A DNA stretch of 64,000 bases from Nostoc sp. FACHB-280 (GTDB taxonomy: Bacteria; Cyanobacteriota; Cyanobacteriia; Cyanobacteriales; Nostocaceae): NCBI RefSeq assembly GCF_014697615.1, contig NZ_JACJSD010000003.1:1-64000 (forward strand). Reading direction: 5' to 3'. The first letter of the stretch is position 1; each line of letters starts with the position of its first letter. Under the pieces are notes generated by a model. The model did not search any database, was not told the DNA's origin, and saw only the letters and a program-made list of their open reading frames with translations. Shown in pieces: positions 9,790 to 63,873 of the stretch. A program made the position numbers and the translations under genes.

Positions 9790-9826
9790 AGATACCCAAC
9801 TTCTCAAAGAATTCGGGTATCTTTTT
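9790..9826 (+). terminator. Rho-independent-type hairpin with T tract
   Basis: GATACCC pairs with GGGTATC across an imperfect inner stem and a short loop, followed directly by CTTTTTG. It lies about 60 bases after the small membrane protein gene and points the right way to terminate it. The arms resemble a diverged version of the 31-bp palindromes at the left edge, so it may be a repeat used as a terminator. Confidence 0.6.
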
Positions 9827-12355: not shown

Positions 12356-14054
12356 GGTTTTATATCTAGGAGATGACATCAATACCGATGATATTATTCC
12401 TGCCAATCGAGCTACTACATACGATCCAGAAAAGCTGAAAAACTATGCTTTAGAACATTTGATTGGCATCGGGGAACTACAGAAATATAACGTGATTGTC
12501 GCTGGGAAAAATTTTGGTTGTGGTTCTAGTCGAGAAATTGCGCCTGTTGCCCTAAAAGCGGCAGGGATTGAAAAGATTCAAGCGCAATCTTTTGCAGAAA
12601 TTTTTTATCGTAATAGCATCAATATTGGACTGACCCTAGAAATTTTGGGAGAAAAACCAGAGAATCCTGTTGTAGATGCGATCGCTCAAGCAGGTGGATT
12701 GATAGCTTTTAATCAAATGCGTCGTCAGGGGAAAATCACTATTCCGCAAAGTCTGACCCCAAAACGACCCATGACTTTAGTTGAAAAACTTTTAGCTAAA
12801 GCCTCTGGTAACAACTATGTTCGTCCTGGGGAAGTAGTTTTTGCTCAGGTCGATTTAGCTTTATCTCATGATGCTGTGGCTGGGCCTGTCGCCGCGACAT
12901 TTTATAAACACTATGGAGAAGCTACCAAGCTGTGGGACGCGCAAAAGGTAGTTCTGGTAGCAGACCATTTTATCCAAGTCAATGACATTCGTAGCGATCG
13001 CAAAGCCAATGTCATGTATGAAGAGATGATTCAGTTTGCCCAAGAGCAAGGCTGTCATTTATTTGACATGGTTTCCCCTGGCGAAGCTGCGGGTATCTGT
13101 CATGTTTTACTCCCAGAAAAAGGACTTGTCCGACCAGGAATGATCATTGCGGGAACAGACTCCCACACCTGTACCTACGGCGCGTTAGGAGCTTTTTCCA
13201 CCGGGGTTGGTACTACAGATATGGCCAATATCTATGCAATGGGGGATATGTGGATTCGAGTTCCCTCAACATTAGTATTCGACTTGTCTGGAACTTTACC
13301 TCCTTATATCAGCGCCAAAGATATTATTTTGTTTATTCTGGGGCAAATCGGTTGTGCTGGGGCGACTGGTAAAGTGATGGAGTTTCGCGGCTCAATCCTT
13401 GCACAACTGCCCTTTGATGAACGATTGACTCTAGCGAATATGGCCGTTGAGTGTGGTGCTATCTGTGGGTTGATTGTGCCAGATGAGACAACCAAAAATT
13501 ATGTGAAAAGTCGCTCTAACCAGGAATTTACAGAAATTATTGCCGATACTGATGCGGAGTACGAAAAAATTTATCAATTTGACCTCAGCCATCTAGAACC
13601 GCAAGTTGCCCGTCCCCCAAAACCAGATCAAGTAGTTCCCATTAGTGAGTTAGAAGAAGTTCCTATCACCAAAGCTTTTATTGGCTCTTGCACAGGTGGC
13701 AAACTCTACGATTTAGCACAGGCGGCTGAAGTTTTGCAGGGTCGCCAACTCGCAGATGGCGTGAATTTATTTATTGTCCCGGCCAGCGTAGAAATCAGAG
13801 AACAAGCCCAAGAGTTAGGTTATCTCGATATTTTTGCCCAAGCAGGCGCACAAATTCTCAAATCTGGTTGTGGTGCTTGTATCAATTCTGGAATTGGGGT
13901 TTTAGATAAAGAAGAAACGGGGATTTATGCAACCAATCGTAATTTTAAAGGACGCAGTGGTGATCCTACTGGTAAAAACTATTTAGCCTCCCCCAGAACG
14001 GTGGCAATATCAGCAATCAAAGGCAAAATTAGCTACTCTCTTGATGAAAAATAA
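12339..14054 (+). CDS. hphCD: HphCD, fused isopropylmalate isomerase-like dehydratase
   Basis: About 571 residues from the ATG at 12339 (an in-frame ATG at 12309 lies deeper inside hphB and is less likely). The N-terminal 165 residues are the small LeuD-like swivel subunit (YLGDDINTDDIIPA; GKNFGCGSSREIAP). The rest is the LeuC-like aconitase subunit with cluster cysteines in SHTCTYGALG, GSCTGGKLYD and SGCGACINSG. Housekeeping isopropylmalate isomerase is normally two separate polypeptides; the small-then-large fusion is characteristic of HphCD. It should isomerise the hydroxy-acid between the HphA and HphB steps to make homophenylalanine or homotyrosine. It lies between hphB (overlapping by 17 bases) and aptA (33-base gap). 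Confidence 0.87.
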   Translation: MSHTNKVLYLGDDINTDDIIPANRATTYDPEKLKNYALEHLIGIGELQKYNVIVAGKNFGCGSSREIAPVALKAAGIEKIQAQSFAEIFYRNSINIGLTLEILGEKPENPVVDAIAQAGGLIAFNQMRRQGKITIPQSLTPKRPMTLVEKLLAKASGNNYVRPGEVVFAQVDLALSHDAVAGPVAATFYKHYGEATKLWDAQKVVLVADHFIQVNDIRSDRKANVMYEEMIQFAQEQGCHLFDMVSPGEAAGICHVLLPEKGLVRPGMIIAGTDSHTCTYGALGAFSTGVGTTDMANIYAMGDMWIRVPSTLVFDLSGTLPPYISAKDIILFILGQIGCAGATGKVMEFRGSILAQLPFDERLTLANMAVECGAICGLIVPDETTKNYVKSRSNQEFTEIIADTDAEYEKIYQFDLSHLEPQVARPPKPDQVVPISELEEVPITKAFIGSCTGGKLYDLAQAAEVLQGRQLADGVNLFIVPASVEIREQAQELGYLDIFAQAGAQILKSGCGACINSGIGVLDKEETGIYATNRNFKGRSGDPTGKNYLASPRTVAISAIKGKISYSLDEK

Positions 14055-14087: not shown

Positions 14088-17000
14088 ATGAAAGAAATGG
14101 TGATCAACTCTACGCGTGATATTCAAAATTTGTCTGCTTTAACTGAGCAGGAAAGACACAAAATCTTGGTGGAATGGAATAATACATCTGTAGATTATCA
14201 TCAACATTTGTGCATACAAGAATTATTTGCGGCACAAGTAGCGAAAACACCAGATAATATTGCGATCGCCTTTGAAGGTCAACAACTTACTTATCAAGAG
14301 TTGAATCACCGAGCTAACCAAGTAGCTCATTATTTACAATCTTTGGGTGTAAAACCAGACGTATTAGTCGGGATTTGTCTTGAGCGTTCCCTGGAAATGA
14401 TCATCGGACTCTTAGGAATCCTCAAGGCTGGTGGTGCATATCTACCGTTAGATTCGACATATCCCCAAAACCGTCTGTCTTTCATGTTGTCAGACTCACA
14501 AGCGTCATTACTGTTAACTCAGCAAAAGTTTGTGGAAAAGTTTGCGGCAAGTGATATTAAGACTGTCTGTTTGGATGCGGACAGAGACTTAATTGATTCT
14601 CAAAGCCCAGATAATCCTCATAGTGATGTCACCTCAGAAAATCTGGCTTATGTAATTTATACATCTGGTTCCACAGGCACACCCAAAGGCGTTGCTGTCC
14701 CCCATCGGGCTGTAAATCGGCTAGTCTGCAACACCAATTATGTGCAGTTTACATCTGCTGAACGTACAGCCCAAGCCTCGAATACTTCCTTCGATGCCGC
14801 CACCTTTGAGATTTGGGGTTCATTGCTGCATGGGGCGACCTTAGTGGGTGTTCCGCAGAATGTTCTGCTCTCACCCCTGGATTTTGCCGCCTACATCCGT
14901 GAGCATAAAATTAATGTATTATTTTTAACTACTGCTTTATTTAATCAATTAGCTAATATTGCACCCCAAACATTCCAAGACTTGCGCTACTTGCTATTTG
15001 GTGGCGAGGCTGTAGACCCCAAGTCTGTGAAAGCAGTTCTAGACAATGGCGCACCACAGCATTTGCTGCACGTTTATGGCCCAACTGAAAGTACAACTTT
15101 CTCTTGTTGGTATCAAGTTGAGGATGTTCCAGAAGGGGCTACAACTTTACCCATTGGTCGCCCGATATCGAATACACAAATCTATATACTAGACTCCCAA
15201 CTACAACCTGTTCCTGTTGGTACTCCTGGGGAAATTTACATTGGTGGCGATGGTTTAGCAAGAGGCTACCTCAACCGTCCAGAGTTGACTGAAGAAAGAT
15301 TTATTCTGCATCAGTTGGCAGAGGTAGGAGAAACTAGATTATATAAAACCGGAGATTTAGGACGTTATTTACCAGACGGAAATATCGAGTTTGTCGGGCG
15401 AGTCGATAACCAAGTGAAGATTCGCGGCTTCCGCATTGAATTAGGAGAAGTCGAAGCAGCTTTACATCAACACCCAGACATACAGCAAGCGGTGGTAATT
15501 GTCCGCGAAGATGTTCCTGGTGATAAACGGTTGGTTGGCTATATCGTTCCTCAGCCAGAATCAGGAGTCAACGCCACAACTGTAAAACGCTTTCTAGAAG
15601 AAAAGTTGCCTACCTATATGGTGCCAGCAGCTTTGATGATGCTTGACTCCTTACCTTTGACCCCCAATGGTAAGCTAGACCGCCGCAGTCTCCCAGCCCC
15701 AGCACGGACACGCCCCGATTTAGAAGAAGCTTTTATTGCACCTCGTAACCCAGTTGAAGAGAAGTTAGCTACTATCTGGGCAGAATTATTGGGACTGGAT
15801 GTAGTAGGAATCAATGATAATTTCTTCTGTTTGGGTGGTCATTCTCTGATTGTGACTCAGATGCTTTCTCGTGTGCGGGAAGTTTTCGCGGTTCACATAT
15901 CCTTTACTCAGATATTTGCCAATCCCACCATAGCTGCTGTAGCTCAACTCATAGTCCAAGGTGGGGAAGAATCACAATGGCAACGTCCTGTCATCCAACG
16001 CATTTCTCATGAAGGACTTGTACCAGTTTCTTTTTCGCAAGAGCGTATCTACTTCGTCCATAAATTAGCACCAGAAAATAGTGCTTATCAATTCCAAGCC
16101 ACGATGGAAATTAAAGGTGTCTTGAATATTGCAGCACTACAACGCTCTTTAGATGAGATTGTCAAGCGTCATGAAATCTTCCGCACAACTTATCAGGAAG
16201 TAAATGGTCGCCTATATCAAGTAATTCACCCCCATCCAGGAGCCGCTTTTAGAGTCGTTGACTTGCGAGGAATTCCCGAAGCTGAAAGGGAAATAGAAGC
16301 GCAAAAGTTAGTTGAGGAAGAAGTTCTCACACACCTAGACCTGACACAACTACCCATAGTTCAATGGGCTGTATTTCAGTTGAGCGACCAGGAATATATA
16401 TTGACCCATGTTGAGCATCACATGGCGCATGATGGCTGGTCTTTTAATGTCTTTTTGGGTGAGTTGGTAGCACTGTATGAAGCTTTCTCGGCGGGTAAAC
16501 CTTCCCCACTACCTGAATTAAGTTATCAGTTTGCAGATTTTGCTACTTGGCAGCGTGAATGGGCGAAAACTCCAGAAGCGCAAGCCCAGTTGGCTTATTG
16601 GCAACAAAAATTAGCAGGAATTCCGCCGTTGTTGGAATTACCTTACGATCGCCCACGCCCGAAAGAACAAACTTATAATGGCGATCACGTCAGGATGGAA
16701 TTACCTGTCGATTTGTGTGAAGACTTGAGAGTTTTCAGTCATCAAGAAGGTGCAACCTTATTTATGACGATGCTGGAAGCTTTTATCATCCTGTTGCATC
16801 GATACATTGGGCAAGATGATATTTTTATCGGGTCTGCGGTGGCGAATCGCCGGATACACCAAATCGAGAAGATTATGGGGATGATTGTCAATAACTTGGT
16901 GTTACGCACCGATGTATCAGGTAATCCCACCGTGCGGGAATTACTCGACCGTGTGCGCCAAGTGACAATGGAAGCTTACGCCAACGAAGACGTACCTTTC

Positions 17001-20000
17001 GATAAAGTTGTAGAAGCGATTAGACCAGTCCGTAACCTGAGCCATAATCCTCTGTTTCAGGTGATGTTCAGTTTCCATAACTCCGCCAAGCCATATCTGA
17101 AGTTCCCTGGCTTTGACTTCTTCTTACATGAACCGGCGAGTAACAAATCTGCGAAGTTTGATATTGACTTCCTCGTTATTCCACGGTTTGAACAAAGCGT
17201 ACAACACGGCGCGAAAACTGGAGCTAAAGGAATTACCTTAGTTTTGGAATATAACAGCGACCTGTTTGATGCTGACACCATGCAAGAGATGTTAGAGCAG
17301 TATCAACAGGTACTAATTGAGATGCTTGCCAACCCAGAGCAGCAAATTGGGCAAATACCTCTGGTCACGCCATCTCAGCAGCAATTACTAGAAGAATGGA
17401 CGCAAAAATACCGAGAATATACACAGAAAGAGTGTATCTATAAGTTATTTGAGCAGCAAGTAGAATTAACACCCGATGCTGTAGCTGTAGAACAAGACGG
17501 GCATAAATTAACTTACCGCGAATTGAGCGATCGCGCCAACCAAATCGCCCACTATCTGCAAAGTTTGGGAGTGAAGCCAGAAACCTTAGTAGGTTTGTGC
17601 GTTGAGCGTTCCCTGGATATGATTGCAGGTTTACTGGGCATTCTCAAAGCTGGTGGTGCTTACGTTCCCCTTGACCCTGCTTATCCCCAAGAACGCATCA
17701 CTGAGATTGTGACCGATACCCAGCTTGGTATTTTGCTCACACAAGCGCGATTCCAAGATAAATTAGCAGGTTATACAGGCAAAACAATTTGTTTAGACAC
17801 AGATTGGCAATTAATAGCCACCCACAGCACAGCTAATCCAGTTAGTGATGTGCAACTAAATCACCTGGCTTACATTATTTATACCTCTGGCTCTACAGGT
17901 AAACCCAAGGGCGTAATGATTGAGCATCGCTCATTGCAAAACTTTGTCCTCACTGCCATTGATAAGTATGGAATCAATGCTCAAGATAAGGTGCTGCAAT
18001 TTGCCTCAGTTTGTTTCGATACATCTATTGAAGAAATTTTCCCCTGTTTGTGTGTTGGTGCAACCTTAGTTTTACGCACCGAAGCCATGCTCAACTCTAG
18101 TGATGACTTTTGGCAATGTTGCCAAAAATCACAGTTGACTGTGTTGGATTTACCGACAGCATATTGGCATCAATTAGTCGCAGAATTGCAACCCCAAGAC
18201 TCGCGCATTCCCGCCAGTTTGAGGACTGTAATTATCGGTGGTGAAGAAGCCCAACTAGAAAAAGTGCAACGTTGGCACAGTAGCATTGCTCATCTTGAGC
18301 CATCACCCCAATTATTTAACAGCTACGGCCCAACAGAAGCCACAGTCGTCACCACCCTAGAACGCCTCACCCCAGAATTAACCTCCATCAGCATTGGTAA
18401 ACTAATTAGCAATGCTCAACTTTATGTTTTAGACCAATATCTGCAACCCTTACCCATAGGAGTCCCAGGAGAACTGCATATTGGAGGAGCAGGACTAGCC
18501 AGAGGCTACTGGCAACGTCCTGAACTCACAGCCGAGAAATTCATAGAGTTTTCCTCCCCCACACCGCTAAAACTCTACAAAACCGGCGATTTAGTCAGAT
18601 TGCGGAAAGATGGCAATCTAGAATACCTGGGACGAGTTGACAACCAAGTGAAAATTCGCGGCTTCCGCATTGAGTTGGGCGAAATTGAAGCAGTATTACG
18701 ACAACATCCCCAAGTGTCGCAAGCTGTGGTAATTGCCCATGAAGAAGTTCCCGGACAAAAGCGGCTCGTGGCTTATGTTGTACCTCACTACCCCTCTCCC
18801 AACCTCTCACGCCAGTTTGCTCAAGTCGGGAAACCCGCCCACGCAACTGGCTCCCCTACAAGGAGAGAGGCTTCAGATATTCCCCCTTCCCTTATAGGGA
18901 AGGGGGCTAGGGGGTTAGGTTCCGTGGACGAATTGCGCGATTTCCTCAAACAAAAACTGCCGCATTTCATGATTCCGGCGGCGTTTATGTTGCTGGAAAG
19001 CATTCCGATGACTCCTAACCAAAAGGTAGACTATCGCGCTTTACCAACACCTGACTTTTCTCGCAGTGCGGAAGATAAATTTGCTGCACCCCGCACACTA
19101 ATAGAAGAGAAATTAGTAGCAATTTGGTCGGAAGTCCTCAGAATAGAAAATGTTGGCATTCACGATAACTATTTTGAATTGGGTGGCGACTCAATTCTGA
19201 GTATTCAGCTAGTTTCCAAAGCTAATCAGGCGGGTATCCAAATTGCAGCTAAACAGCTATTTAAATATCAAACCATTGCTGAGTTAGCCACTGTAGTGGG
19301 TATCACTCGCAAAATCAATGCTGAACAGGGATTAGTCGCCGGTGATGTAGGATTAACACCGATTCAACAATGGTTTTTCGAGCAGAAATTATCCCAACCC
19401 AATTACTTTAACCAGTCAGCATTACTGGAAGTACCAACAGATGTACAACCTGAGTTATTACAGCAGGTAATTCAACAACTGTTATTACATCACGATGCTT
19501 TACGTCTGCGGTTTGTGCAGCAAGGTGAAACCTGGGAGCAAATTCACACCACCCAGGAAACTGTACCACTGAGCATTTTTGATTTATCCCATCTTGCACC
19601 AGCAGAACAAGACGCTGCTATCAAAGCTCAAGACGCTGAACTCCAGGCGAGTCTGGATTTAACCACCGGAAAAATCGCACAATTCGCCTTATTCCAACTA
19701 GGAAGCGATCGCCCCAGTAGTTTACTTTGTATCATCCATCACTTAGCCGTTGACGGAGTTTCCTGGCGGATTTTACTGGAAGACTTAGCCACTGCTTACC
19801 AACAAATTAGCCGGGGTGAGGCGATTAAACTACCAGCCAAGACAACATCATGGCAATATTGGAGCGATCGCTTAACAGCATACGCCCAAACCGAAGCCGT
19901 CAAACAATTGGATTACTGGCTGAGTCAATCTGATATTCCAGTTACACCCTTACCAGTAGACTATCCATCTGATAACGAAAATAACACCGTCGCCGCAACT

Positions 20001-20753
20001 GCATCTGTGTCGCTGGCGTTGACTGAAGAACAAACCCGCGCCCTATTACAAGATGTACCTTCAGCCTACAACACTCAAATTAACGACGTACTTTTAACAG
20101 CCTTAGTACAAAGTTTTGCCCAGTGGACAGGCGAAAATTCTTTAGTCGTCGATTTAGAAGGACATGGAAGGGAAGACTTATTTGAAGATGTAGACTTGTC
20201 GCGGACTGTTGGCTGGTTTACCACCTTATTTCCCGTCGGGTTACAACTCAAAGACAGTGAAAATTTAGGAGACGCTTTAAAGTCAGTCAAAGAACAACTG
20301 CGACAAATTCCCCACCGAGGAATCGGTTATGGCGTACTGCGATATCTGCACGCAAACCCCACCATCCGCGAAAAATTAGCATTTCGACCACCAGCACAAG
20401 TTAGTTTTAACTACCTTGGTCAATTTGATCAAGTGCTGAGAGCATCTGCAAACCTGGGTGCAGCCCAAGAATTCAAATCAGAACAAAGCTCACTCAATAC
20501 ACGCTCTCACCTGTTAGGAATAAGCGGCTTTATTCGTGCAGGAAAACTAGAAATGACCTGGAGTTATAGCGAAAAAATCCACAAACGAGAAACCATTGAA
20601 AAATTAGCTGCAAAATTCATAGAAGCCCTAACAAATCTCATAGCCCACTGTCAATCAAAAGACTCCCAAAGCTATACCCCCTCCGACTTTTCCGCCGCCA
20701 AACTTAACCAAAAACAACTAGACAAATTCCTCACCAAAATCAGCAAAAAGTAG
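14088..20753 (+). CDS. aptA: AptA, anabaenopeptin synthetase starter plus D-Lys module
   Basis: A 2221-residue NRPS with order A-T-C-A-T-E. A1 spans about 45-540 (core motif near 185-203), T1 carries the phosphopantetheine Ser586, C has HHMAHDG at 777-783, A2 spans about 1110-1655 (core motif near 1261), T2 has Ser1702 in GGDS, and the epimerase has HHLAVDG near 1884. By my hand alignment the A1 pocket reads D-A-F-F-L-G-V-T-F-K, an Ile-type code, and A2 reads D-T-E-D-I-G-S-V-V-K, a Lys-type code. Starter, Lys and epimerase match the exocyclic residue and D-Lys of anabaenopeptins; the ureido bond is presumably made at this C domain. A2 has a variant A10 motif (NQK for NGK, Lys retained) and a 45-residue repeat-derived insertion at 1568-1612. 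Confidence 0.92.
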   Translation: MKEMVINSTRDIQNLSALTEQERHKILVEWNNTSVDYHQHLCIQELFAAQVAKTPDNIAIAFEGQQLTYQELNHRANQVAHYLQSLGVKPDVLVGICLERSLEMIIGLLGILKAGGAYLPLDSTYPQNRLSFMLSDSQASLLLTQQKFVEKFAASDIKTVCLDADRDLIDSQSPDNPHSDVTSENLAYVIYTSGSTGTPKGVAVPHRAVNRLVCNTNYVQFTSAERTAQASNTSFDAATFEIWGSLLHGATLVGVPQNVLLSPLDFAAYIREHKINVLFLTTALFNQLANIAPQTFQDLRYLLFGGEAVDPKSVKAVLDNGAPQHLLHVYGPTESTTFSCWYQVEDVPEGATTLPIGRPISNTQIYILDSQLQPVPVGTPGEIYIGGDGLARGYLNRPELTEERFILHQLAEVGETRLYKTGDLGRYLPDGNIEFVGRVDNQVKIRGFRIELGEVEAALHQHPDIQQAVVIVREDVPGDKRLVGYIVPQPESGVNATTVKRFLEEKLPTYMVPAALMMLDSLPLTPNGKLDRRSLPAPARTRPDLEEAFIAPRNPVEEKLATIWAELLGLDVVGINDNFFCLGGHSLIVTQMLSRVREVFAVHISFTQIFANPTIAAVAQLIVQGGEESQWQRPVIQRISHEGLVPVSFSQERIYFVHKLAPENSAYQFQATMEIKGVLNIAALQRSLDEIVKRHEIFRTTYQEVNGRLYQVIHPHPGAAFRVVDLRGIPEAEREIEAQKLVEEEVLTHLDLTQLPIVQWAVFQLSDQEYILTHVEHHMAHDGWSFNVFLGELVALYEAFSAGKPSPLPELSYQFADFATWQREWAKTPEAQAQLAYWQQKLAGIPPLLELPYDRPRPKEQTYNGDHVRMELPVDLCEDLRVFSHQEGATLFMTMLEAFIILLHRYIGQDDIFIGSAVANRRIHQIEKIMGMIVNNLVLRTDVSGNPTVRELLDRVRQVTMEAYANEDVPFDKVVEAIRPVRNLSHNPLFQVMFSFHNSAKPYLKFPGFDFFLHEPASNKSAKFDIDFLVIPRFEQSVQHGAKTGAKGITLVLEYNSDLFDADTMQEMLEQYQQVLIEMLANPEQQIGQIPLVTPSQQQLLEEWTQKYREYTQKECIYKLFEQQVELTPDAVAVEQDGHKLTYRELSDRANQIAHYLQSLGVKPETLVGLCVERSLDMIAGLLGILKAGGAYVPLDPAYPQERITEIVTDTQLGILLTQARFQDKLAGYTGKTICLDTDWQLIATHSTANPVSDVQLNHLAYIIYTSGSTGKPKGVMIEHRSLQNFVLTAIDKYGINAQDKVLQFASVCFDTSIEEIFPCLCVGATLVLRTEAMLNSSDDFWQCCQKSQLTVLDLPTAYWHQLVAELQPQDSRIPASLRTVIIGGEEAQLEKVQRWHSSIAHLEPSPQLFNSYGPTEATVVTTLERLTPELTSISIGKLISNAQLYVLDQYLQPLPIGVPGELHIGGAGLARGYWQRPELTAEKFIEFSSPTPLKLYKTGDLVRLRKDGNLEYLGRVDNQVKIRGFRIELGEIEAVLRQHPQVSQAVVIAHEEVPGQKRLVAYVVPHYPSPNLSRQFAQVGKPAHATGSPTRREASDIPPSLIGKGARGLGSVDELRDFLKQKLPHFMIPAAFMLLESIPMTPNQKVDYRALPTPDFSRSAEDKFAAPRTLIEEKLVAIWSEVLRIENVGIHDNYFELGGDSILSIQLVSKANQAGIQIAAKQLFKYQTIAELATVVGITRKINAEQGLVAGDVGLTPIQQWFFEQKLSQPNYFNQSALLEVPTDVQPELLQQVIQQLLLHHDALRLRFVQQGETWEQIHTTQETVPLSIFDLSHLAPAEQDAAIKAQDAELQASLDLTTGKIAQFALFQLGSDRPSSLLCIIHHLAVDGVSWRILLEDLATAYQQISRGEAIKLPAKTTSWQYWSDRLTAYAQTEAVKQLDYWLSQSDIPVTPLPVDYPSDNENNTVAATASVSLALTEEQTRALLQDVPSAYNTQINDVLLTALVQSFAQWTGENSLVVDLEGHGREDLFEDVDLSRTVGWFTTLFPVGLQLKDSENLGDALKSVKEQLRQIPHRGIGYGVLRYLHANPTIREKLAFRPPAQVSFNYLGQFDQVLRASANLGAAQEFKSEQSSLNTRSHLLGISGFIRAGKLEMTWSYSEKIHKRETIEKLAAKFIEALTNLIAHCQSKDSQSYTPSDFSAAKLNQKQLDKFLTKISKK
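18789..18923 (+). repeat. Repeat-derived 135-bp in-frame insertion within aptA
   Basis: Exactly 45 codons interrupt the usual passage from YVVPH to VDELRDFLKQKLP in the A2 C-terminal subdomain of AptA. The core 18809-18854 matches the intergenic 44404-44449 at 44 of 46 bases. The flanks are C-rich runs and ccctt/aaggg inverted segments typical of non-coding Nostocales repeats. The insert has no stop codon in this frame, so the NRPS stays open. Its sequence is low-complexity and unlike the surrounding A domain. Confidence 0.85.
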
Positions 20754-20847: not shown

Positions 20848-23800
20848 ATGCAAAACATCGAAGACCTTTATGAACTTTCACCGATGCAACAAGGGATGTT
20901 GTTTCATACCCTTTATGCACCAGAGTCAGAAGTTTATTTTGAGCAGTTAGTTTGCATACTCTCTGGGGAATTGAATTTTCCGGCGTTCCAAACAGCTTGG
21001 GAACAAGTTGTGGCGAGACATTCAGTGTTACGTAGTTCCTTTTATTGGGAAGAGATAGAAAAACCCTTGCAAGTGGTGAGTAAGCAGGTGGATCTTCCTT
21101 GGGAGAAGCTGGATTGGCGGAATTTCGCACCTGATGAACAACAGCAGCAGTTAGAAGAGTGGTTAAAAAGCGATCGCCAAAAGGGATTTACTCTCAATCA
21201 AGCCCCCCTGATGCGCTTTACCATCATTCAATTAGGAGAGCAAACCCACCAGTTTATTTGGAGTCATCATCACATTCTTTTTGATGGCTGGTCAATGCAA
21301 ATCGTTCTCAAAGAAGTCTTAGCTTTGTATGAAGCTAGTCAGCGAGGTGAAAATTTACGTCTCCCTGGAGTTCGCCCCTATCGAGAATATATTGAGTGGT
21401 TACAGCAACAAGATATTGAGCAAGCAAAAAACTTTTGGTGCAAAACTCTTCAAGGTTTAGAAGTTCCTACTTTATTGGGGAATTGGGGATTAGGGACACT
21501 TCGACAAGCTCAGTGCATCGCTGGGGACTGGGGACTGGGAAGATACAAGGAGCAACATTTTCAATTATCACCAACGGTAACTGAAAAATTGCAATCTTTG
21601 GCGCGACAGCACCATTTAACTTTGAATAATTTAGTGCAAGGCGCATGGGGATTACTAATTTCCCGCTATAGTTCGACTTCGCTCACTATAAACAGTGGTG
21701 AAAATGATGTGGTTTTTGGTGCAACTGTATCCGGTCGTCCCGCAACTCTAGAAAAAGTAGATTCAATGGTAGGGCTATTAATTAATACCCTACCAGTCCG
21801 ATTACAAATTACAGCCAAGACAGAATTATTAACCTGGCTCCAACAATTACAAACCCAAGCCTTAGAACAAGAACAATATGCTTATTGTTCCCTAGCAGAA
21901 ATTCAACAAATGAGTGAGATTCCCCCAGGAATGTCACTGTTTGATAGTCTTTTAGTATTTGAGAATTATCCAGTAGATTCAAGTAAACAAGCAGCTCAAA
22001 AAACTTTAGAAGTTCAGCTAATTAGTTGTTTTGAACGCACTAATTATCCTCTGACTTTAGTAATTAATCCTGCTGTCCAATTAGCTGGCAGGTTTGTTTA
22101 CGATACTAGCTGTTTTGATGGGCAAACAATTAACCGAATGATTGGGCATTTCCAAACATTGCTCACAAACATAGCAGCTAATATACAACAAAAAGTTGCT
22201 CAATTATCATTACTCAGTGTAGAAGAAGAAGCGCAATTAATTCAGCTAGAGAATCATCAAACAGCAGATTCTCTTAATTATAAATGTCTTCATGTTTTAT
22301 TTGAGGAACAGGTAAACAAAACACCTGATGCAATAGCACTTACATATAAACAGGAAAATTTAACTTACAGAGAATTAAATCACCGCGCTAATCAATTAGC
22401 TCATTATTTAAAATCATTGGGAATTAAACCAGAAGTCCGGGTGGGAATTTGTGTTGAGTGTTCCTTAGAAATGGTGATTGGAATACTCGCTATTCTCAAA
22501 GCTGGTGGGGCTTATGTACCAATAGATCCAGCTTATCCGACTGAAAGACTAGCTTTAATAATCGAAGATACACAAACACCCATCTTATTAACTCAAACTC
22601 ATTTAAAAAATAGACTCCCAATTAATCATCAAACTGTAGTGGATTTTGATACAGACTGGGAAATTATTGCTCAATATTCACAAGATAATTTACTCAGTGA
22701 AGTTACTCCAGAAAATTTAGCATATATTATTTATACCTCCGGCTCAACAGGAACACCAAAAGGAACAGAAGTTCCTCATCGCAGCTTCATCGGTTTTATG
22801 TTTGGGGTGGATTATATTCACTTTGATGAAACCCAAGTTTGGCTACAACATTCATCTATTTCTTGGGATGGACTCACCTTAGAAATGTGGCCAGCACTGC
22901 TGTATGGTGGACGCTGTGTACTGTATCCCGAAAAGATTCCTACACCAGAAAGTTTAAGCCAAATTATTCAAGAACAAAAAGTTAACACCCTTTGGTTAAC
23001 TTCCGCCTTGTTCAATCTAATCATTGACCAAATACCCCAAAGTTTATTAGGTGTTAAACAACTGCTGATAGGTGGAGAATCTTTGTCTGTAGATCATGTC
23101 CGTCGCGCCTTAAAACTACTACCAGAAACTCAAATAATTAATGGTTATGGGCCTTCGGAATGTACAGTATTTACCTGTTGTTATCCCATTCCTCAACAAC
23201 TATCTGAAAATCTCAGTTCTATTCCTATTGGTAAACCCATTGGCGATCGCACAACTTACATCCTAGATGAAAATTTACATAGAGTTCCAGTTGGTGTAGT
23301 CGGTGAACTGTATGTGGGTGGAGCAAGTGTTGCTAGAGGTTACTTAAATCAACCAAAATTAACTAGTGAACGATTTATTCCCAATCCTTTCATTTTAGAA
23401 GATACACTTTACAAAACAGGTGATTTAGTCCGTCGTTTACCTGATGGAAATTTAGAATTTATTGGACGAATTGACACACAAGTCAAAATTCGTGGTTTTC
23501 GCATTGAATTAACAGAAATTGAGGCTGTTTTGATTCAGCATCCCGACATTCAGCAAGTTGTAATGATGGTGCGGGAAGATGAACCAGGGAAGAAATTATT
23601 AGTAGCTTATTCAGTAGCGCAAATTAATACGCCAACTCCTAAGAGTTTACGAAATTTCCTCAAGGAAAAGCTTCCAGATTATATGATTCCTACTGCTTTC
23701 GTATTTCTGGAAGCACTACCCCTAACTCCTAACGGTAAAGTTAACCGCCGTGCTTTACCTCTTCCTGATCAAACCCAAAGAAATCTAGAGATTGATTTTA

Positions 23801-24123
23801 TTGCTCCTAGCACACCAATTGAAAAAGAATTAGCCACGATTTGGACTGAAGTTCTGCAATTACAACAGGTAGGAGTTCACGATAACTTTTTTGAGTTGGG
23901 GGGACATTCTTTACTAGCTACTCAAGTTATTTCTCGCTTAAGGGAAGTTTTTAATTTAGATTTCCCTTTGCGTTATTTGTTTGACAATCCTACTATTGCT
24001 GAACTGGCTCAAAAAGTCATGGAACAGCAAATTGAGCAAGCAGAAAATGACGATTTAGCAAGAATTTTGGCAGAGGTAGATCAGTTATCAGAAGAGGAGG
24101 TGACACAGCAGTTAATGTTTTGA
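20848..24123 (+). CDS. aptB: AptB, single-module anabaenopeptin synthetase (C-A-T)
   Basis: A 1091-residue NRPS module. The condensation domain (about 5-440) starts with the LCL/DCL-type DLYELSPMQQGMLFH and has HHILFDG at 141-147. The adenylation domain (about 465-975) has the pocket D-G-L-W-L-G-G-V-F-K by my alignment, close to Val/Ile-type codes. The carrier domain has Ser1021. This fits the third, usually aliphatic, residue of anabaenopeptins, accepted after the D-Lys made by AptA. A C-terminal acidic helix (LSEEEVTQQLM) probably docks to the N-terminal helix of AptC. The start is supported by AGAGGT upstream of the ATG. Two odd segments in the C domain, near residues 210-235 and 272-284, look like intergenic repeat DNA read in frame. 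Confidence 0.92.
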   Translation: MQNIEDLYELSPMQQGMLFHTLYAPESEVYFEQLVCILSGELNFPAFQTAWEQVVARHSVLRSSFYWEEIEKPLQVVSKQVDLPWEKLDWRNFAPDEQQQQLEEWLKSDRQKGFTLNQAPLMRFTIIQLGEQTHQFIWSHHHILFDGWSMQIVLKEVLALYEASQRGENLRLPGVRPYREYIEWLQQQDIEQAKNFWCKTLQGLEVPTLLGNWGLGTLRQAQCIAGDWGLGRYKEQHFQLSPTVTEKLQSLARQHHLTLNNLVQGAWGLLISRYSSTSLTINSGENDVVFGATVSGRPATLEKVDSMVGLLINTLPVRLQITAKTELLTWLQQLQTQALEQEQYAYCSLAEIQQMSEIPPGMSLFDSLLVFENYPVDSSKQAAQKTLEVQLISCFERTNYPLTLVINPAVQLAGRFVYDTSCFDGQTINRMIGHFQTLLTNIAANIQQKVAQLSLLSVEEEAQLIQLENHQTADSLNYKCLHVLFEEQVNKTPDAIALTYKQENLTYRELNHRANQLAHYLKSLGIKPEVRVGICVECSLEMVIGILAILKAGGAYVPIDPAYPTERLALIIEDTQTPILLTQTHLKNRLPINHQTVVDFDTDWEIIAQYSQDNLLSEVTPENLAYIIYTSGSTGTPKGTEVPHRSFIGFMFGVDYIHFDETQVWLQHSSISWDGLTLEMWPALLYGGRCVLYPEKIPTPESLSQIIQEQKVNTLWLTSALFNLIIDQIPQSLLGVKQLLIGGESLSVDHVRRALKLLPETQIINGYGPSECTVFTCCYPIPQQLSENLSSIPIGKPIGDRTTYILDENLHRVPVGVVGELYVGGASVARGYLNQPKLTSERFIPNPFILEDTLYKTGDLVRRLPDGNLEFIGRIDTQVKIRGFRIELTEIEAVLIQHPDIQQVVMMVREDEPGKKLLVAYSVAQINTPTPKSLRNFLKEKLPDYMIPTAFVFLEALPLTPNGKVNRRALPLPDQTQRNLEIDFIAPSTPIEKELATIWTEVLQLQQVGVHDNFFELGGHSLLATQVISRLREVFNLDFPLRYLFDNPTIAELAQKVMEQQIEQAENDDLARILAEVDQLSEEEVTQQLMF

Positions 24124-27600: not shown

Positions 27601-30600
27601 AACTAAACCGCCGAACATTACCAGCACCAAATACAACTGTTTCCACTGCTTTGGAGATGCCAATAACTTCCACAGAAGAGTTGCTGGCTAGTTTATGGCA
27701 AGGTTTGTTAAAAATTCAGTCTGTAGGTCGCTCTGATAACTTCTTTGAACTGGGTGGACATTCCCTGTTAGCAACTCAATTAGTTGCCCGCATTCGTGAT
27801 AGTTTCGGGGTAGAGTTACCTGTTCGTAAGATATTTGAGCAAAGCATTTTATCTGAGTTGGCGAGGGAAATTGATAAAGCATCTGCGAGTGTTGCTTTAC
27901 CTCCTATTTCACCCCAGTCAGAAAATGAACCAAAAACTCTTTCTTTTGCCCAATCAAGACTTTGGTTTATCGCTCAACTGGAAGGAAAAGGAACTTCTTC
28001 TACCTATAATATGCCGATCGCACTCCAACTAAACGGCAAATTAAATGTAGAGGCTCTCCGACAAAGTTTAACTTATTTGCTAGAACGGCATACAAGTTTA
28101 CGCTCTTATTTCCCAGCCTTAGAGGGAGAACCCCAAGTAGTAGTTCAAAATATTGAAGATATAGAAGTATTAGAAATTGCGGACTTACAAACACTCGATC
28201 CTCAGACACAAGCGGAAACTGTACAACGGTTAGCAGATAGCCATGCACAAGCACCCTTGAACTTAAATACTGGCCCCCTGTTCAAAGCCAAACTACTGCA
28301 ACTAAGCCAGCAAAAAAATGTCCTGCTGATTAATATGCACCACATTATCAGTGATGGCTGGTCAATGGGTGTATTTAAGCGGGAATGGGAACAAGCTTAT
28401 GCTGCTTATGCTGTGGGTTCTACTCCCAACCTATCACCATTACCAATTCAATATAGTGATTATGCAGTTTGGCAGCGCAATTGGTTAAAAGGGGAAATTT
28501 TAGCCAGCCAAGAAAATTATTGGCAACAACAACTAGGTGATGCGCCTCGTGTGCTGGATTTACCGACTGATTACCCCCGTCCAGCACAACAAAGTTATCA
28601 GGGTGAACATGAGGAATATTGTTTAAGTAAGGAACTAACACAGCAACTCAAAGTCCTGAGTCAAAAACACGGGGTAAGTTTGTTTATGACCCTGTTAACG
28701 GCTTTTAGTATCTTACTATCGCGTTACAGCCGCCAAGAAGATTTATGTATTGGTAGTGCGATCGCTAACCGCACCCATAGCTATACAGAAGGGTTAATCG
28801 GCTTTTTTGTCAATACCTTAGTATTGCGGAGCAAAATCAAGCCAGAGCGAAGCTTTAGTGAATTACTGCAACAAACGCGCCAAACTTGCTTAGATGCTTA
28901 TGCTCATCAAGACATTCCCTTTGAGTATCTGGTAGAAAAACTACAACCAGAACGCAGCTTGAGCCGTAATCCCCTCTGCCAAGTGATGATAGCTTTACAA
29001 AACACCGAAGGCGTAGGGGAAAATGTTAGTTTACCTGGGTTAGATATTCAAACATTCGAGCAAAGTTTCCCGTTTGCTAAATTTGACCTGGGACTTGATC
29101 TGCGGGAACATAACAACCAACTTAACTGTGTCTGGGAATACACAACTGATTTATTTGCGGCGGACACAATTAAGCATATGGCGAGACACTTTGAAGTCTT
29201 GCTGACAGCAATTACCGCAAATCCCCAACAGCCTATTAGTAAGCTACCGCTCATCAGCACAGCAGAAATTCAACAGTTGCAAACGTGGAATCAAACAGAT
29301 ACCGATTACCCGCAAGACCAAACACTGGTAACTCTGTTTGAACAACAAGCCGCAAAAAACCCTGATCAAACTGCAATAGTTTTTGCAGATAGCAGCCTTA
29401 CCTATCATCAGTTAAATCAAAAAGCCAATCAACTGGCTCATTACCTAATTCAAAATCACCAAATTCATCCAGATACCTTAATTGGTATCTGCGTCGAACG
29501 CTCTTTGGAAATGATTATTGGTGTACTCGGTATCCTCAAAGCAGGTGGCGCATACCTACCGATTGATCCCAATTATCCCCAAGAACGAATTAAGTTCATG
29601 TTAGAAGATTCTGGGACATCGGTATTATTAACCCAAAGTTTCCTCAAACACCAATTACCAACCAATCAACTAGAAAACCCACCTCAAGTAATTTGTTTAG
29701 ATCAGGAAACGTTTGCTCAGGAGTCAACAAAAAATCCCCTGTCTCAAAGTACACCCAATGATTTAGCTTATGTCATTTACACCTCTGGTTCTACAGGACA
29801 GCCCAAAGGGGTAATGATTGAGCATCGCGCAATTGTCAATTTAAGTTTGGCTTGGGCGCAGACTTTTCAAATTCAACCCCAAAATCGCTTGTTGCAATTT
29901 GGTTCTTTTAGTTTTGATTTGTCTATTGGTGAAATCGCCACTAATTTAGTCAGTGGTGCTTGCTTGTATTTGAGTGATAAAGAAACTCTGTTACCCGGTC
30001 AAAGCCTAGTAGACTTTTTAATTGAAAACAAAATTACTCACAGTTTTCTTTCTCCTTCAGCCTTATCTGTCTTACCAAACGTGAGTTTCCCTGATTTGCA
30101 ATGTGTGACTGTTGGCGGAGAGGCTTGTACTGCTGAATTAGTTAACCAATGGGGAACAGAACAACGTTTATATAATTGCTACGGGCCGACAGAAACCACG
30201 GTGACTGCTGCCTTAGCTCCTTGTCAACCTAATGGCAAAAAACCACCTATCGGTCAACCAATATCTAATCTCCGCATCTATATATTAGATCCACACAACC
30301 AACAATTACCCCCAGGAATACCAGGGGAATTGTGCATTGCTGGTGTGGGTTTAGCCAGAGGTTATCTCAACCGCCCGGAATTAACAGATGAAAAGTTCGT
30401 TGAAGTTGAGTTATTTGGTAAAACTGAGCGAATTTATAAAACTGGTGATTTAGCCCGTTGGCTACCTGACGGCAATTTAGAATACTTAGGCCGCATTGAC
30501 CATCAAGTTAAAGTCCGTGGTTTCCGCATTGAATTAACTGAAATTGAAGCGACATTAGTTCAACATCCCAAAATTCAGGAAGCAGTTGTCACTGTTCGGG

Positions 30601-32348
30601 AAGAAACTGATCTGGATAAACGGTTGGTAGCTTATGTTGTGCCGACACTAACAGAAGACAACACAAACCCAGATGAATTGGTGGAATTATGGGAAGACAT
30701 TTTTAATACTAACTATGCTCACCAAACAACGCCCACTGACGACCCCACCCTAAATATAGTCGGTTGGAATGATAGCTACACAGGCCAACCCATTCCGCCA
30801 GAAGCAATGCAAGAATGGCGAGATACAACCGTTGAGAAAATTCTCGAACTTCAACCCGAAAGAGTTTGGGAAATCGGCTGCGGTTCAGGGATGTTATTGT
30901 TTAAAGTCGCGCCCCATTGTCAGCATTATTTTGGTACAGATTTTGCGCCAGAGGCATTGCAGTACATATCACAATATCTAGAACAGCAGTCACTTCAAGA
31001 AAAAGTTACCTTAAAAACTGGTGCTGCTCATCAGTTTGATGGTATTGAAACCAATGCTTTTGACTTAGTAATCATCAATTCTGTAATTCAATATTTCCCC
31101 TCTTTGGATTACTTGTTGTCAGTTATTGAAGGAGCAATCAAAACTGTTAGAAATCAGGGCAAAATCTTGATTGGAGATGTGCAAAATCTCCACTTATTAG
31201 AGGCTTTCCACACCGCAGCCGATTTTTATCGCGCCCCTGATGATTTATCAATTCAGGACTTGCGCCAACAAATTCAAAACAGTATTCGCACCGAAGAAGA
31301 ATTATTAATTGATCCTGATTTCTTTATTGCCCTCAAGCAAAGATTTCCTCGGATTAGTCATGTGCAAATTGAACTAAAACGGGGTTACAGTCATACGGAA
31401 ATGAGCCGTTTTCGTTATGACGTTGTTTTGTACTTAGATCGGGCAGATATTACCCTGAAGCAACCGGAATGGTTAAATTGGCAAGGGCAACAGTTGAATC
31501 TGGAAACAATCGAGAGAATTTTAACCACCCAGCAACCAGACTTACTAGGGATTAAAAATATTCCTAATGCTCGTCTCACTCCTGAAATGGCGTTGTTAGA
31601 ACAAATACCTCAATTAGATGGTACTGTCAAAAACTTAAAAGCAGTAATTTCCCAAGCCCAATCAGGTATAGAACCAGAAACACTCCGAAATCTAACGCGA
31701 GATTTGCCCTATAAGGCGTTTATTCAATATAGCTCCACAGGATTTGCTGATTATGATGTTGTGTTTCAACGCCATATTCCTGGAGAGGAGACAGTACCAA
31801 AATTTGCGACAAAAGGCAATTGGCGGCTGAAACCTTGGCAAAATTACGCCAACCAACCTTTACAATATCGCAGTCATCAAGTTGATCCAGCTTTATTAAC
31901 AGAATGGCGGGATTTTCTGGGCAAAACTCTGCCTGATTATATGATTCCCAGCCATTTCATCGTCTTGGAAAAACTGCCACTGACACCAAATGGCAAAATA
32001 AACCGTAAAGCCTTACCTGCACCGGATCAAATTGTCACTACAAAAGATATTGAATTACCTGTTACAGAAACAGAAAAATCACTGGCGCAGATATGGGCAA
32101 AGTTACTCAAATATGAAGCGATCGCCCGACAAGATAATTTTTTCAACTTGGGGGGACATTCATTACTTGCTACCCAACTTTGTTATCGCATCCGTGACAC
32201 ATTCAACATAGAACTGCCACTGCGTCAAGTATTTGAGACTCCCAACTTAATGGACTTGGCAAGTTATATAGATAGCTTCCTGTGGGTTAATGCCGCTACC
32301 GCAGATATAGAACCTTTAAACTCAGACGAAGAGGAAATCGAACTATGA
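24660..32348 (+). CDS. aptC: AptC, two-module synthetase with N-methyltransferase
   Basis: A 2562-residue NRPS with order C-A-T-C-A(nMT)-T. C1 has HHIVCDG from His173, T1 Ser1035, C2 HHIISDG from His1227, T2 Ser2501. The second A domain is split by an N-methyltransferase (about 2000-2330) with the SAM-binding VWEIGCGSGMLLF near 2068. Pockets by my alignment: D-L-G-F-G-G-C-V-I-K (module 1) and D-L-G-F-T-G-C-V-T-K (module 2), both of the DLGF type I associate with homotyrosine, which fits the hph genes. The two A domains are strikingly alike, as after recent duplication or conversion. It should add residue 4 and the N-methylated residue 5. The tail ends in an acidic DEEEIEL motif that suits docking to AptD. 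The stop overlaps the aptD start (ATGA). Confidence 0.92.
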   Translation: MSDLLKRLESLSPEKRELVLQKLKQQQKSPVLTSVSREQNLPLSFAQQRLWFIDQLEDKNCVYNVPFFWQIEGLLDINALEKAILEIVQRHEVLRTSFSMVDESPIQVIHAHPQVQMQVLDWRQVQETEQLSKTQHLATTELQQPFDLSNPPLLRVKLLKLAEKSHLLLLVIHHIVCDGWSMDIFRQELFNLYKAFCAGESSPLPALSLQYADFAHWQRQYLQGEVLQNQLNYWRKQLADVPPLLELPTDHQRPSVQSFRGSSEFLAISQELTQKLKRLSQESGTTLFMTLLAVFALLLSRYSGQKDIVVGSAIANRNRREIEPLIGFFVNTLALRTNLEGNPSFLELLQRVKQVTLDAYDHQDLPFEKLVDELGLERSLAHHPLFQVAFGLQSGTPKQLEIPGLTLTRFEWENTTTLFDLSLIFRETPQGLIGEWEYATDLFAAETIQRMTEHFAVLIKQIIDNPNQSINNLSLLTEDEIQQLQNWNQTQTEYTQNKTLVNLFEQQVAKNSDNLAVVFASQSLTYQQLNEKAEQLADYLIARYQIQPDTLIGISVERSLEMIIGVLGILKAGGAYVPIDPNYPPERILFMLEDSGISVLLTQSYLVNKLPLDSLENPVEVVYLDDSSRIDVEKQSKISKNQVKPDNLAYVIYTSGSTGKPKGVMIEHQAIVNLALGWVETFQFQPHNRLLQFGSFSFDLSIGEIATALSAGACLYLANQETLLPSQTLVDFLTEHKITHLFLPPSALATLPKATLSNLQSIGVGGEACPAELVSEWGTGRRFYNCYGPTECTVIAAISLCQPNGKKPLIGKPSPNLRIYILDANNQPLPPGIPGELCVAGVGLARGYLNRPEITAEKFIEIDLFGKTERIYKTGDLARWDNDGHLEYLGRIDEQVKLRGFRIELGEIESLLLQHPLVQEAVVILSETDNNSRLVAYITTTEKSANVAEEVREYLKNRLPNYMIPSQIMVLDQFPLTANGKLNRRTLPAPNTTVSTALEMPITSTEELLASLWQGLLKIQSVGRSDNFFELGGHSLLATQLVARIRDSFGVELPVRKIFEQSILSELAREIDKASASVALPPISPQSENEPKTLSFAQSRLWFIAQLEGKGTSSTYNMPIALQLNGKLNVEALRQSLTYLLERHTSLRSYFPALEGEPQVVVQNIEDIEVLEIADLQTLDPQTQAETVQRLADSHAQAPLNLNTGPLFKAKLLQLSQQKNVLLINMHHIISDGWSMGVFKREWEQAYAAYAVGSTPNLSPLPIQYSDYAVWQRNWLKGEILASQENYWQQQLGDAPRVLDLPTDYPRPAQQSYQGEHEEYCLSKELTQQLKVLSQKHGVSLFMTLLTAFSILLSRYSRQEDLCIGSAIANRTHSYTEGLIGFFVNTLVLRSKIKPERSFSELLQQTRQTCLDAYAHQDIPFEYLVEKLQPERSLSRNPLCQVMIALQNTEGVGENVSLPGLDIQTFEQSFPFAKFDLGLDLREHNNQLNCVWEYTTDLFAADTIKHMARHFEVLLTAITANPQQPISKLPLISTAEIQQLQTWNQTDTDYPQDQTLVTLFEQQAAKNPDQTAIVFADSSLTYHQLNQKANQLAHYLIQNHQIHPDTLIGICVERSLEMIIGVLGILKAGGAYLPIDPNYPQERIKFMLEDSGTSVLLTQSFLKHQLPTNQLENPPQVICLDQETFAQESTKNPLSQSTPNDLAYVIYTSGSTGQPKGVMIEHRAIVNLSLAWAQTFQIQPQNRLLQFGSFSFDLSIGEIATNLVSGACLYLSDKETLLPGQSLVDFLIENKITHSFLSPSALSVLPNVSFPDLQCVTVGGEACTAELVNQWGTEQRLYNCYGPTETTVTAALAPCQPNGKKPPIGQPISNLRIYILDPHNQQLPPGIPGELCIAGVGLARGYLNRPELTDEKFVEVELFGKTERIYKTGDLARWLPDGNLEYLGRIDHQVKVRGFRIELTEIEATLVQHPKIQEAVVTVREETDLDKRLVAYVVPTLTEDNTNPDELVELWEDIFNTNYAHQTTPTDDPTLNIVGWNDSYTGQPIPPEAMQEWRDTTVEKILELQPERVWEIGCGSGMLLFKVAPHCQHYFGTDFAPEALQYISQYLEQQSLQEKVTLKTGAAHQFDGIETNAFDLVIINSVIQYFPSLDYLLSVIEGAIKTVRNQGKILIGDVQNLHLLEAFHTAADFYRAPDDLSIQDLRQQIQNSIRTEEELLIDPDFFIALKQRFPRISHVQIELKRGYSHTEMSRFRYDVVLYLDRADITLKQPEWLNWQGQQLNLETIERILTTQQPDLLGIKNIPNARLTPEMALLEQIPQLDGTVKNLKAVISQAQSGIEPETLRNLTRDLPYKAFIQYSSTGFADYDVVFQRHIPGEETVPKFATKGNWRLKPWQNYANQPLQYRSHQVDPALLTEWRDFLGKTLPDYMIPSHFIVLEKLPLTPNGKINRKALPAPDQIVTTKDIELPVTETEKSLAQIWAKLLKYEAIARQDNFFNLGGHSLLATQLCYRIRDTFNIELPLRQVFETPNLMDLASYIDSFLWVNAATADIEPLNSDEEEIEL

Positions 32349-36565: not shown

Positions 36566-36630
36566 CCTATCAACCACAAGCAATTAATAATCCGAATCAC
36601 TTTATTTTGAATTTTAATTGGTATAAAAAA

Positions 36631-44131: not shown

Positions 44132-44160
44132 TGGTCAATGGTTAATAGTTGAGGACTGAG

Positions 44161-44243
44161 GCACCAAGATTGTCTGTGAAGACTGAGTATAGGGGTGAAA
44201 GGGTATGGGGTGTAAGCGTTTGAGATACATACACCCTTACACC
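44161..44243 (-). repeat. 83-bp dispersed repeat family A, copy 1
   Basis: The reverse complement of this stretch aligns over 83 bases, without gaps and with about nine mismatches, to 63874-63956. It is non-coding, with gggtgtaa-type runs and a conserved end reading cacagacaatcttggtgc. It lies just after the NAD kinase gene. Confidence 0.85.
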
Positions 44244-44403
44244 CCTATACCCATGATCAATAGACAACCTTCACCTGAGTCAAAATTGTTTCTTTGGGTT
44301 TTTTCCCGAATTACTGGTTTATAAATAGAATTAAAAAGCAAAGTTATCGCCAAGTGCTGATACCAATTCACGAAATTACTGATACAAATCACTTCCTCTG
44401 CAC

Positions 44404-44449
44404 ACGCCAGTTTGCTCAAGTCGGGAGACCCGCCCATGCAACTGGCTCC
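44404..44449 (+). repeat. 46-bp repeat shared with the aptA insertion
   Basis: Matches 18809-18854 inside aptA at 44 of 46 bases, in the same orientation. It begins acgccagtttgctcaag and ends gcaactggctcc; the inverted ccagt/actgg ends could form a hairpin. A shortened relative occurs near 63013-63032. Confidence 0.85.
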
Positions 44450-44547
44450 TCTGCTCCCTCTGCTTGCCTGTGTGTATCATTTTGAAAGTGAAATGGTATG
44501 AGTGCTACTCCTGTTGACCATTGACCATTGACTTTTGACTAAAATTT

Positions 44548-45234: not shown

Positions 45235-45235
45235 A

Positions 45236-53262: not shown

Positions 53263-53291
53263 AATAATTAACAGCAAGTTGCAGCCGAAGC

Positions 53292-63755: not shown

Positions 63756-63873
63756 AATTATGGCCGCAACCTTTATTTTTATCCTAATTAATACCCTTTC
63801 ACCCCCACACCCAATCCCTGACAGGTGTAGGTTTTTTACGTTATGCTCCAAAAACCTTGATTTAGGGTGTAAG

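What the first reader, a model, noticed from the sequence alone, without database searches (positions are those of the whole stretch)
18789..18923. Intergenic repeat inserted in frame in the AptA Lys-type A domain
Exactly 45 codons of repeat DNA interrupt the A-domain C-terminal subdomain, just before the conserved DELRDFLKQKLP helix. A 46-bp core is 44/46 identical to an intergenic element 25 kb away. The insertion keeps the frame and adds a low-complexity loop, so a mobile non-coding repeat has become part of a working megasynthase, or has damaged it.
Basis: seen in the sequence. Interest (0 to 1): 0.7.

Follow-up and report, generated by a model that had tools for sequence, protein, structure and literature searches.

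The report
Nested repeats inside a peptide-making enzyme
Two different pieces of dispersed repeat DNA, one sitting inside the other, lie in frame in a cyanobacterial enzyme gene and probably form a floppy loop that the enzyme tolerates, which gives a natural example, with its order of events visible, of repeat DNA becoming protein.

Summary
The insert in AptA's second A domain is two dispersed repeats, one inside the other: a degraded MITE core (B, 86 bp) carrying a 45-bp hairpin repeat (A). Net gain over the empty site is 40 codons. The order is visible: G270 is empty; G273, G040 and G036 carry B without A; this genome carries both. B's patchy spread (own and G273 but not G270; G040 and G036 but not G085 or G200), and its 95% identity beside 80% identical flanks, point to sideways spread of the B-bearing segment or repeated acquisition at one site. 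The gene remains under purifying selection (dN/dS 0.07-0.13 after B between two carriers; up to 0.29 between two others). The insert is modelled as disordered, in the loop that a methyltransferase interrupts in AptC of the same cluster. This genome's only ileS over the family cut-off also carries A nested in another repeat, in frame. Most likely a tolerated loop in a working synthetase; product and activity were not tested. In-frame MITEs are a known kind; the nesting, the visible order and the NRPS site are the variant.

The parts
14088..20753 (+). aptA ORF, two-module NRPS, carrier of the insert
   Evidence: Pfam AMP-binding, Condensation and PP-binding with 2 stretches each; AMP-binding_C passes on its own in the first A domain only
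18791..18921 (+). B element: degraded core of a MITE (86 bp once A is left out), read in frame
   Evidence: shared with AptA of G040, G036, G273
18809..18853 (+). A element: 45-bp hairpin repeat nested in B (end placement ambiguous by the 3 bases CTC: 18806-18850 fits equally)
   Evidence: pre-insertion site in G273; covariation of the stem
18882..18906 (.). perfect inverted repeat CCCCCTTCCCT-TAT-AGGGAAGGGGG in B
   Evidence: RNA fold of 18785-18925, z = -3.17
18922..18928 (+). CCGTGGA, read as a remnant of the 3' end of the B element (GTGGA shared with G040, G036 and G273; absent from the empty sites aligned)
44403..44452 (+). copy of A between genes in the window (94% over 50 nt)
30510..32019 (+). 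A-domain region of AptC in which a methyltransferase domain interrupts the homologous loop (VAYVVP ... RDFLGKTLPDYMIP)

Best explanation
The segment is a two-step, in-frame, nested insertion of dispersed repeats into a surface loop of the C-terminal subdomain of AptA's second A domain. Step 1 (shown by comparison): a degraded core of a MITE-type element (B) came to lie in the loop between the strand KRLVAYVV and the helix DELRDFLKQKLP, in place of about 5 native codons. Step 2 (shown by comparison): in this lineage a 45-bp hairpin repeat (A) entered B. Both kept the frame. The extra residues form a disordered loop at the place where another A domain of the cluster carries a methyltransferase (model and homology). 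The B-bearing version moved sideways between aptA genes of different genera, probably by short-tract homologous recombination (inferred). The loop is tolerated and near neutral, neither adaptive nor destructive (inferred from purifying selection on the rest of the gene).
For: Frame and ORF. Two dispersed families. Empty sites in AptA of G270, G085, G200 and others. B without A in G040 and G036 and G273 (exactly 45 bp). B as MITE core with inverted ends in relatives, read by eye. A as a covarying hairpin: (93.2% of cells paired v 81.3 +/- 1.3 in shuffles; 26 cells changed on both sides v 8.7 +/- 2.1; 0 of 500 shuffles reach either; the structure was taken from the own copy). dN/dS after B, own v G273: 0.069 for 160 codons, 0.131 for 609; own v G270 0.06-0.13 over four regions. 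AF2: pLDDT below 50 at residues 470-506 of a model whose insert is 464-508, mean 79.9, pTM 0.66; A-domain fold matched to ApnA A1 structures. Lateral spread: B differs at 4 of 86 positions between own and G040 while the 1827 nt after B are 80.4% identical (binomial P 7e-5), and the tree puts own beside G270+G273. Homologous loop interrupted in AptC. Parallel: the only ileS over the family cut-off carries A in another repeat, +48 bp in frame v G009.
Against: No expression, product or enzyme data. dN/dS covers the time since the split from G273; A is younger and its effect cannot be separated. Between the B carriers G040 and G036 dN/dS is higher: 0.098 (157 codons after B), 0.189 (A2 before B), 0.291 (C/E). 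Pfam's AMP-binding_C does not pass on its own in the second A domain, as expected of a split profile. The insert has no homologous rows in the alignment, which by itself lowers pLDDT. The AptA copies of B are truncated and no target duplication is visible, so the insertion mechanism is not shown. Sideways transfer would need a tract hardly longer than the insert, since G270 and G273 share SNPs right beside it. The long loops of other NRPSs came partly from a query that held the insert.
Confidence: 0.85

Rival explanations
1. The insert has damaged AptA: the gene is a recent pseudogene that still reads through.
For: A is found only in this genome among the AptA loops read, so too little time may have passed for decay; MITEs in cyanobacteria do make pseudogenes (Anabaena sp. 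90, passages of PMC3542288) and have inactivated mcy clusters (passages of PMC10969869).
Against: Intact 2221-aa ORF and long downstream ORFs; low dN/dS after B between own and G273; disordered loop; the homologous loop takes a methyltransferase in AptC.
Confidence: 0.1
2. The segment is an ancestral protein loop of AptA.
For: B is in AptA of four genomes of four genera (own, G273, G040, G036).
Against: Nearest relatives have a 12-residue loop; the DNA is a dispersed repeat.
Confidence: 0.03
3. B was acquired independently several times at the same place because the loop DNA is a preferred target.
For: Patchy distribution; other repeats sit in or near the same loop in other synthetases; B-type repeats recur in unrelated genes.
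Against: The four AptA copies share CTTCAGA and truncated ends at the same place; in 217 family genomes the core pattern at up to 3 mismatches gave 12 places, and only these four have CTTCAGA.
Confidence: 0.25
4. The insert has a selected role, for example as a hairpin in the mRNA that slows ribosomes near the end of the A domain.
For: The RNA folds better than shuffles: -58.9 v -45.85 +/- 4.12 kcal/mol, z -3.17, 2 of 200 shuffles as good.
Against: Any palindromic repeat would fold well; B carriers and non-carriers coexist among close relatives.
Confidence: 0.07

Closest known systems
Rickettsia palindromic elements (RPE) and other MITEs fused in frame with genes (ERIC, Correia 107 bp, Coxiella QMITE)
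   Same: Short repeats, dispersed, found both between genes and in frame inside unrelated genes; a product can stay active (Rickettsia gmk). Passages read in PMC2229807, PMC10969869 and PMC5896051.
   Different: Other phylum; here one repeat is nested in another within the same codons, the order of steps is shown by relatives, and the host is an NRPS A domain. Sequences were not compared with RPEs.
Small dispersed repeats (SDR) of Nostoc (Elhai et al. 2008)
   Same: Recalled only: hairpin repeats of Nostocales with compensatory changes and nested insertions, as seen for A.
   Different: Recalled SDR units are 21-27 nt; A is 45 nt. The paper was not held, so identity with an SDR was not tested.
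Interrupted A domains (methyltransferase embedded in the A domain)
   Same: Same loop, between the VAYVVP strand and the RDFL..LPxYMIP helix, as in AptC of this window. Passages on embedded MT domains read in PMC6670151.
   Different: The AptA insert is about 45 residues of low-complexity sequence without a recognised domain.
MITEs of bloom-forming Anabaena
   Same: Non-autonomous repeats with inverted ends, 77-541 bp (Anabaena sp. 90, passages of PMC3542288).
   Different: In the passages read, MITEs inside ORFs there led to pseudogenes; here the frame is kept.

Membership tests
MITE (B element) | multicopy, no transposase gene, short | tested here: met
   20 places of the hairpin in this genome; 9-45 matches per genome in 10 relatives, about 40 candidates scored in each of the richer ones; core about 92 nt, no room for a transposase
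MITE (B element) | terminal inverted repeats | tested here: met
   by reading the flanks of relatives' copies: TGACTTTTCACG ... CGTGAAAAGTCA around the core; the AptA copies themselves are truncated and lack the 5' end
MITE (B element) | target-site duplication | tested here: inconclusive
   some copies look flanked by short direct repeats (by eye); none visible in AptA
Rickettsia palindromic element | in-frame presence in unrelated genes | tested here: met
   15 of 60 sampled B copies lie in long ORFs, 10 of them in the AptA frame; varied Pfam content of 20 ORFs
Rickettsia palindromic element | sequence of an RPE family | not tested
   no RPE sequence was compared; no claim of membership is made
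Nostoc SDR (A element) | hairpin with compensatory changes | tested here: met
   7 of 14 pairs with a change on both sides v 3.8 +/- 0.9 shuffled, 2 of 500 shuffles as high
Nostoc SDR (A element) | published SDR sequence and unit size (recalled as 21-27 nt) | not testable with these tools
   paper not held; A is 45 nt
Interrupted A domain | insertion between the VAY strand and the helix before LPxYMIP | tested here: met
Interrupted A domain | inserted catalytic auxiliary domain | tested here: not met
   Pfam finds no domain in the insert of P0001 at E 1e-6; pLDDT below 50

The most novel reading that the evidence does not exclude
The loop before the LPxYMIP helix is a general landing port of NRPS A domains. 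Mobile repeats keep entering it in frame, insert into each other there, and travel between synthetases by short-tract recombination at the repeat; such disordered loops could be the raw material from which interrupted A domains (methyltransferase, PilZ) arise.
Probability: 0.2. Interest if true: 0.75.

Novelty: new variant of a known kind. Interest (0 to 1): 0.52.

Why it matters
In-frame repeats in bacterial genes are known from Rickettsia and others, but the order in which they arrive, and how well they are tolerated, is seldom visible. Here empty, half-filled and fully nested alleles of one megasynthase exist side by side, so the effect of each step on an assayable enzyme can be measured with natural alleles. 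The site coincides with the place where an A domain of the same cluster took up a whole domain, which links repeat DNA to how interrupted A domains might begin.

Tried and rejected
Ancestral loop: rejected by empty sites. One single 135-bp repeat: rejected, two families and nested. A known structured RNA: only a chance-level match to a miRNA family (23.1 bits v gathering 72).

Frame choice: I first put the recurrent frame of B down to stop codons alone, since by eye only two of six frames of the AptA-type sequence are open. One search does not fully bear this out: the AptA frame was open in 31 of 60 copies and served 10 of the 15 long ORFs; one antisense frame was open in 37 of 60 and served none; another antisense frame, open in 21, served 4; one more sense frame, open in 8, served 1. 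Why the AptA frame is favoured is open. One antisense use exists in this genome (L301).

Hot-spot rate: the first impression from genome-search hits was biased by the insert in the query. In the search for related loci set, whose patterns lay outside the insert, 1 of 92 A domains caught by my regex had a loop of 30 residues or more (L132, PilZ), 6 of 92 had 17 or more, and 3 of 92 had a lengthened neighbouring loop. Of 11 loop inserts, the best 20-mer of 7 (L084, L015, L095, L025, L024, L027, L079) was found in more than one other locus at up to 2 mismatches, though for L079 these may be homologous coding sequence; L031 had one other locus besides an overlapping fetch, L030 one hit, L011 only its own re-fetch, L029 none.

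Regex losses: L023, L190 and L202 were missed by the pattern and read or the printed text; the table shows 24 of 32 AptA loci, the rest lost to the regex or to duplicate keys. One search lists 47 places; those without a locus were not read for their loop, only covered by the pattern search.

Papers: Elhai 2008 could not be read. I do not claim that anything is absent from print; searches on in-frame repeats in cyanobacteria, A domains or MITEs were made, in the held open-access library only.

Full report
What is there. AptA (14088-20753, 2221 aa) is read without a stop through 18789-18923. The genome is a 7.64-Mb, 113-contig assembly. The 135 nt give 46 matches in it (self and reverse-strand hits included, 40 of 79 candidates scored), in two blocks: query 20-71 (family A) and 63-133 (family B); one other place, C81:190410, spans both. 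Pattern scans with up to 3 mismatches give 42 A cores and 20 B hairpins, none for reversed controls. Of 42 distinct places fetched with flanks, 36 have no open frame of 120 codons or more through the element; the other 6 are AptA, L040, L041, L042 (near the start of an ORF, doubtful), L060 and L077.

The nesting. Own B is CCCCTCTCCCAACCTCTC, then A, then CCCTACAAGG...GGTTAGGTT. In G040 and G036 AptA, B is present without A. In G273, whose contig holds only the last 681 codons of the ORF and which is 93.9% identical in DNA to own after B, B has the same 3' end as own and no A; the difference is exactly 45 bp. So A came after B. Another B copy in this genome (C81:190410, L056) and a WD40 protein of G001 (L178) carry an A-like element at the same point in B, the latter in frame in a 1962-aa ORF.

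What B is. In relatives the core often sits between inverted ends (TGACTTTTCACGGGATCTGG ... CGTGAAAAGTCA), about 145 bp in all, and the core also occurs with other ends (read by eye). The AptA copies lack the 5' end and keep a remnant of the 3' end. Peptide matches to B occur in 62 of 150 genomes at E <= 0.01. Of 60 copies taken from the first 64 rows (two AptA copies and two partial matches left out), 15 lie in ORFs of 200 codons or more, 10 of these in the AptA frame; the sample leans to copies most like the AptA one. Of 20 ORFs fetched because B is in frame in them, 11 are STAND, CHAT, TPR, NB-ARC or WD40 proteins, 3 are NRPS or hybrid proteins (L172, L177, L179), 4 are a penicillin-binding protein, a pseudouridine synthase, a histidine kinase and an FGE-sulfatase-domain protein, and 2 had no Pfam match.

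What A is. Twenty distinct copies align without gaps over 46 nt; the inner part is nearly fixed and the outer stem covaries (93.2% of cells paired, no shuffle of 500 as high; 7 of 14 pairs changed on both sides, 2 of 500 as high). The structure came from one of these sequences and the rows are related, which can inflate such counts. It is a hairpin repeat.

The empty site and the spread of B. The A2 C-terminal region was searched in 217 family genomes; 42 have a match at E <= 1e-75, not all of them AptA. I read the loop in 32 AptA-type loci and in G273: B is in own, G040, G036 and G273, not in the other 29. G270, with 93% DNA identity to own in A2, is empty. In the tree of the 1827 nt after B, G270+G273 (96.6/98) lie beside own; G040, G085, G200 and G036 form a clade (100/100), within which the grouping of G200 with G040+G085 is weak (62.5/65). 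G085 and G200 are empty. B differs at 4 of 86 positions between own and G040, at 80.4% identity after it (P 7e-5); G040 v G036 2 of 86 at 91.8% (P 0.024); own v G273 2 of 86 at 93.9% (P 0.10, not unusual). These P values take sites as independent and B as neutral. In 217 genomes the B core pattern gave 12 places at up to 3 mismatches; CTTCAGA is in these four AptA copies only. I read this as one insertion followed by sideways movement of a short tract. G270 and G273 share SNPs within about 40 nt 3' of the insert, so the tract must be short, and repeated acquisition at a favoured site stays possible.

Is the enzyme working? dN/dS (Nei-Gojobori, own script) after B is 0.069 for 160 codons and 0.131 for 609 codons between own and G273, both B carriers; 0.06-0.13 between own and G270 over four regions; and 0.098, 0.189 and 0.291 between the carriers G040 and G036 after B, in A2 before B and in C/E. 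Downstream ORFs of the cluster are long; of those scanned, 20848-24120 is an NRPS module and 38046-40067 an ABC transporter. The model puts residues 470-506 of the 464-508 insert below pLDDT 50; the insert has no homologous rows, which also lowers it. The fold matches solved A domains. In AptC of the same cluster a methyltransferase interrupts AMP-binding_C between VAYVVP and RDFLGKTLPDYMIP, the homologous place. Pfam's AMP-binding_C does not pass on its own in AptA's second A domain.

A parallel in a housekeeping gene. The only gene of this genome over the ileS cut-off has A, in the other orientation, inside a TCACGCAGAGACGC-type repeat, in frame, 48 bp longer than in G009, where the outer repeat alone is present; G001 and G002 have neither. 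A also lies in frame in a CheA-like protein (L300), and B in a U32-peptidase-family protein (L301) and a STAND protein (L302); the last insertion is shared with G004.

Limits. No transcript, protein, product or enzyme test was possible. A cannot be dated beyond being later than the split from G273. Loop statistics from genome-search hits are biased by the query; the less biased set gives 1 of 92 loops of 30 residues or more.

Comparison. In-frame MITE or RPE insertions are known in Rickettsia, enterobacteria, Neisseria and Coxiella (passages). This case works like them and is not claimed as an RPE. It adds nesting, a visible order of steps, spread across genera and a site that a natural domain insertion also uses.

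Noticed in passing
G000:C20, L299 / L305 (own ileS): The only IleRS gene over the family cut-off carries an A repeat nested in a TCACGCAGAGACGC-type repeat, in frame, +48 bp against G009.
   Followed up: partly
L132:7098-8204: An A domain of Amazonocrinis nigriterrae CENA67 has a PilZ domain (Pfam PF07238, 5.3e-9) in the homologous loop.
   Followed up: partly
L300, L301, L302 (own genome C53, C30, C92): In-frame A in a CheA-like protein, B on the opposite strand in a U32-peptidase-family protein, and B in a STAND protein shared with G004.
   Followed up: partly
L178 (G001:C107): A-like repeat nested in B at the same point, in frame, in a 1962-aa WD40 protein.
   Followed up: partly
L015, L095, L084, L024, L025, L031: Other repeats in frame in the same or the neighbouring A-domain loop of other synthetases; for L031 the best 20-mer had only one other locus.
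   Followed up: partly
L223-L282: Among 15 long ORFs with B, the AptA frame served 10, while an antisense frame open in 37 of 60 copies served none; unexplained.
   Followed up: no
window 11228-12355, 12309-14054, 36607-37809: Isopropylmalate-dehydrogenase-like, aconitase-like and HMGL-like genes flank the NRPS genes; recalled as resembling the homo-amino-acid pathway (hph genes), not tested.
   Followed up: no
window 210-242, 900-932, 9790-9822: Palindromic repeat AGATCCCCGACTTCTTGAAGAAGTCGGGGATCT, two identical copies and one at 82%.
   Followed up: no
window 44152-44260 and 63857-63965; 45231-45335 and 53163-53267: Two pairs of 105-109 nt inverted repeats at 81-85%, perhaps further repeat elements.
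   Followed up: no
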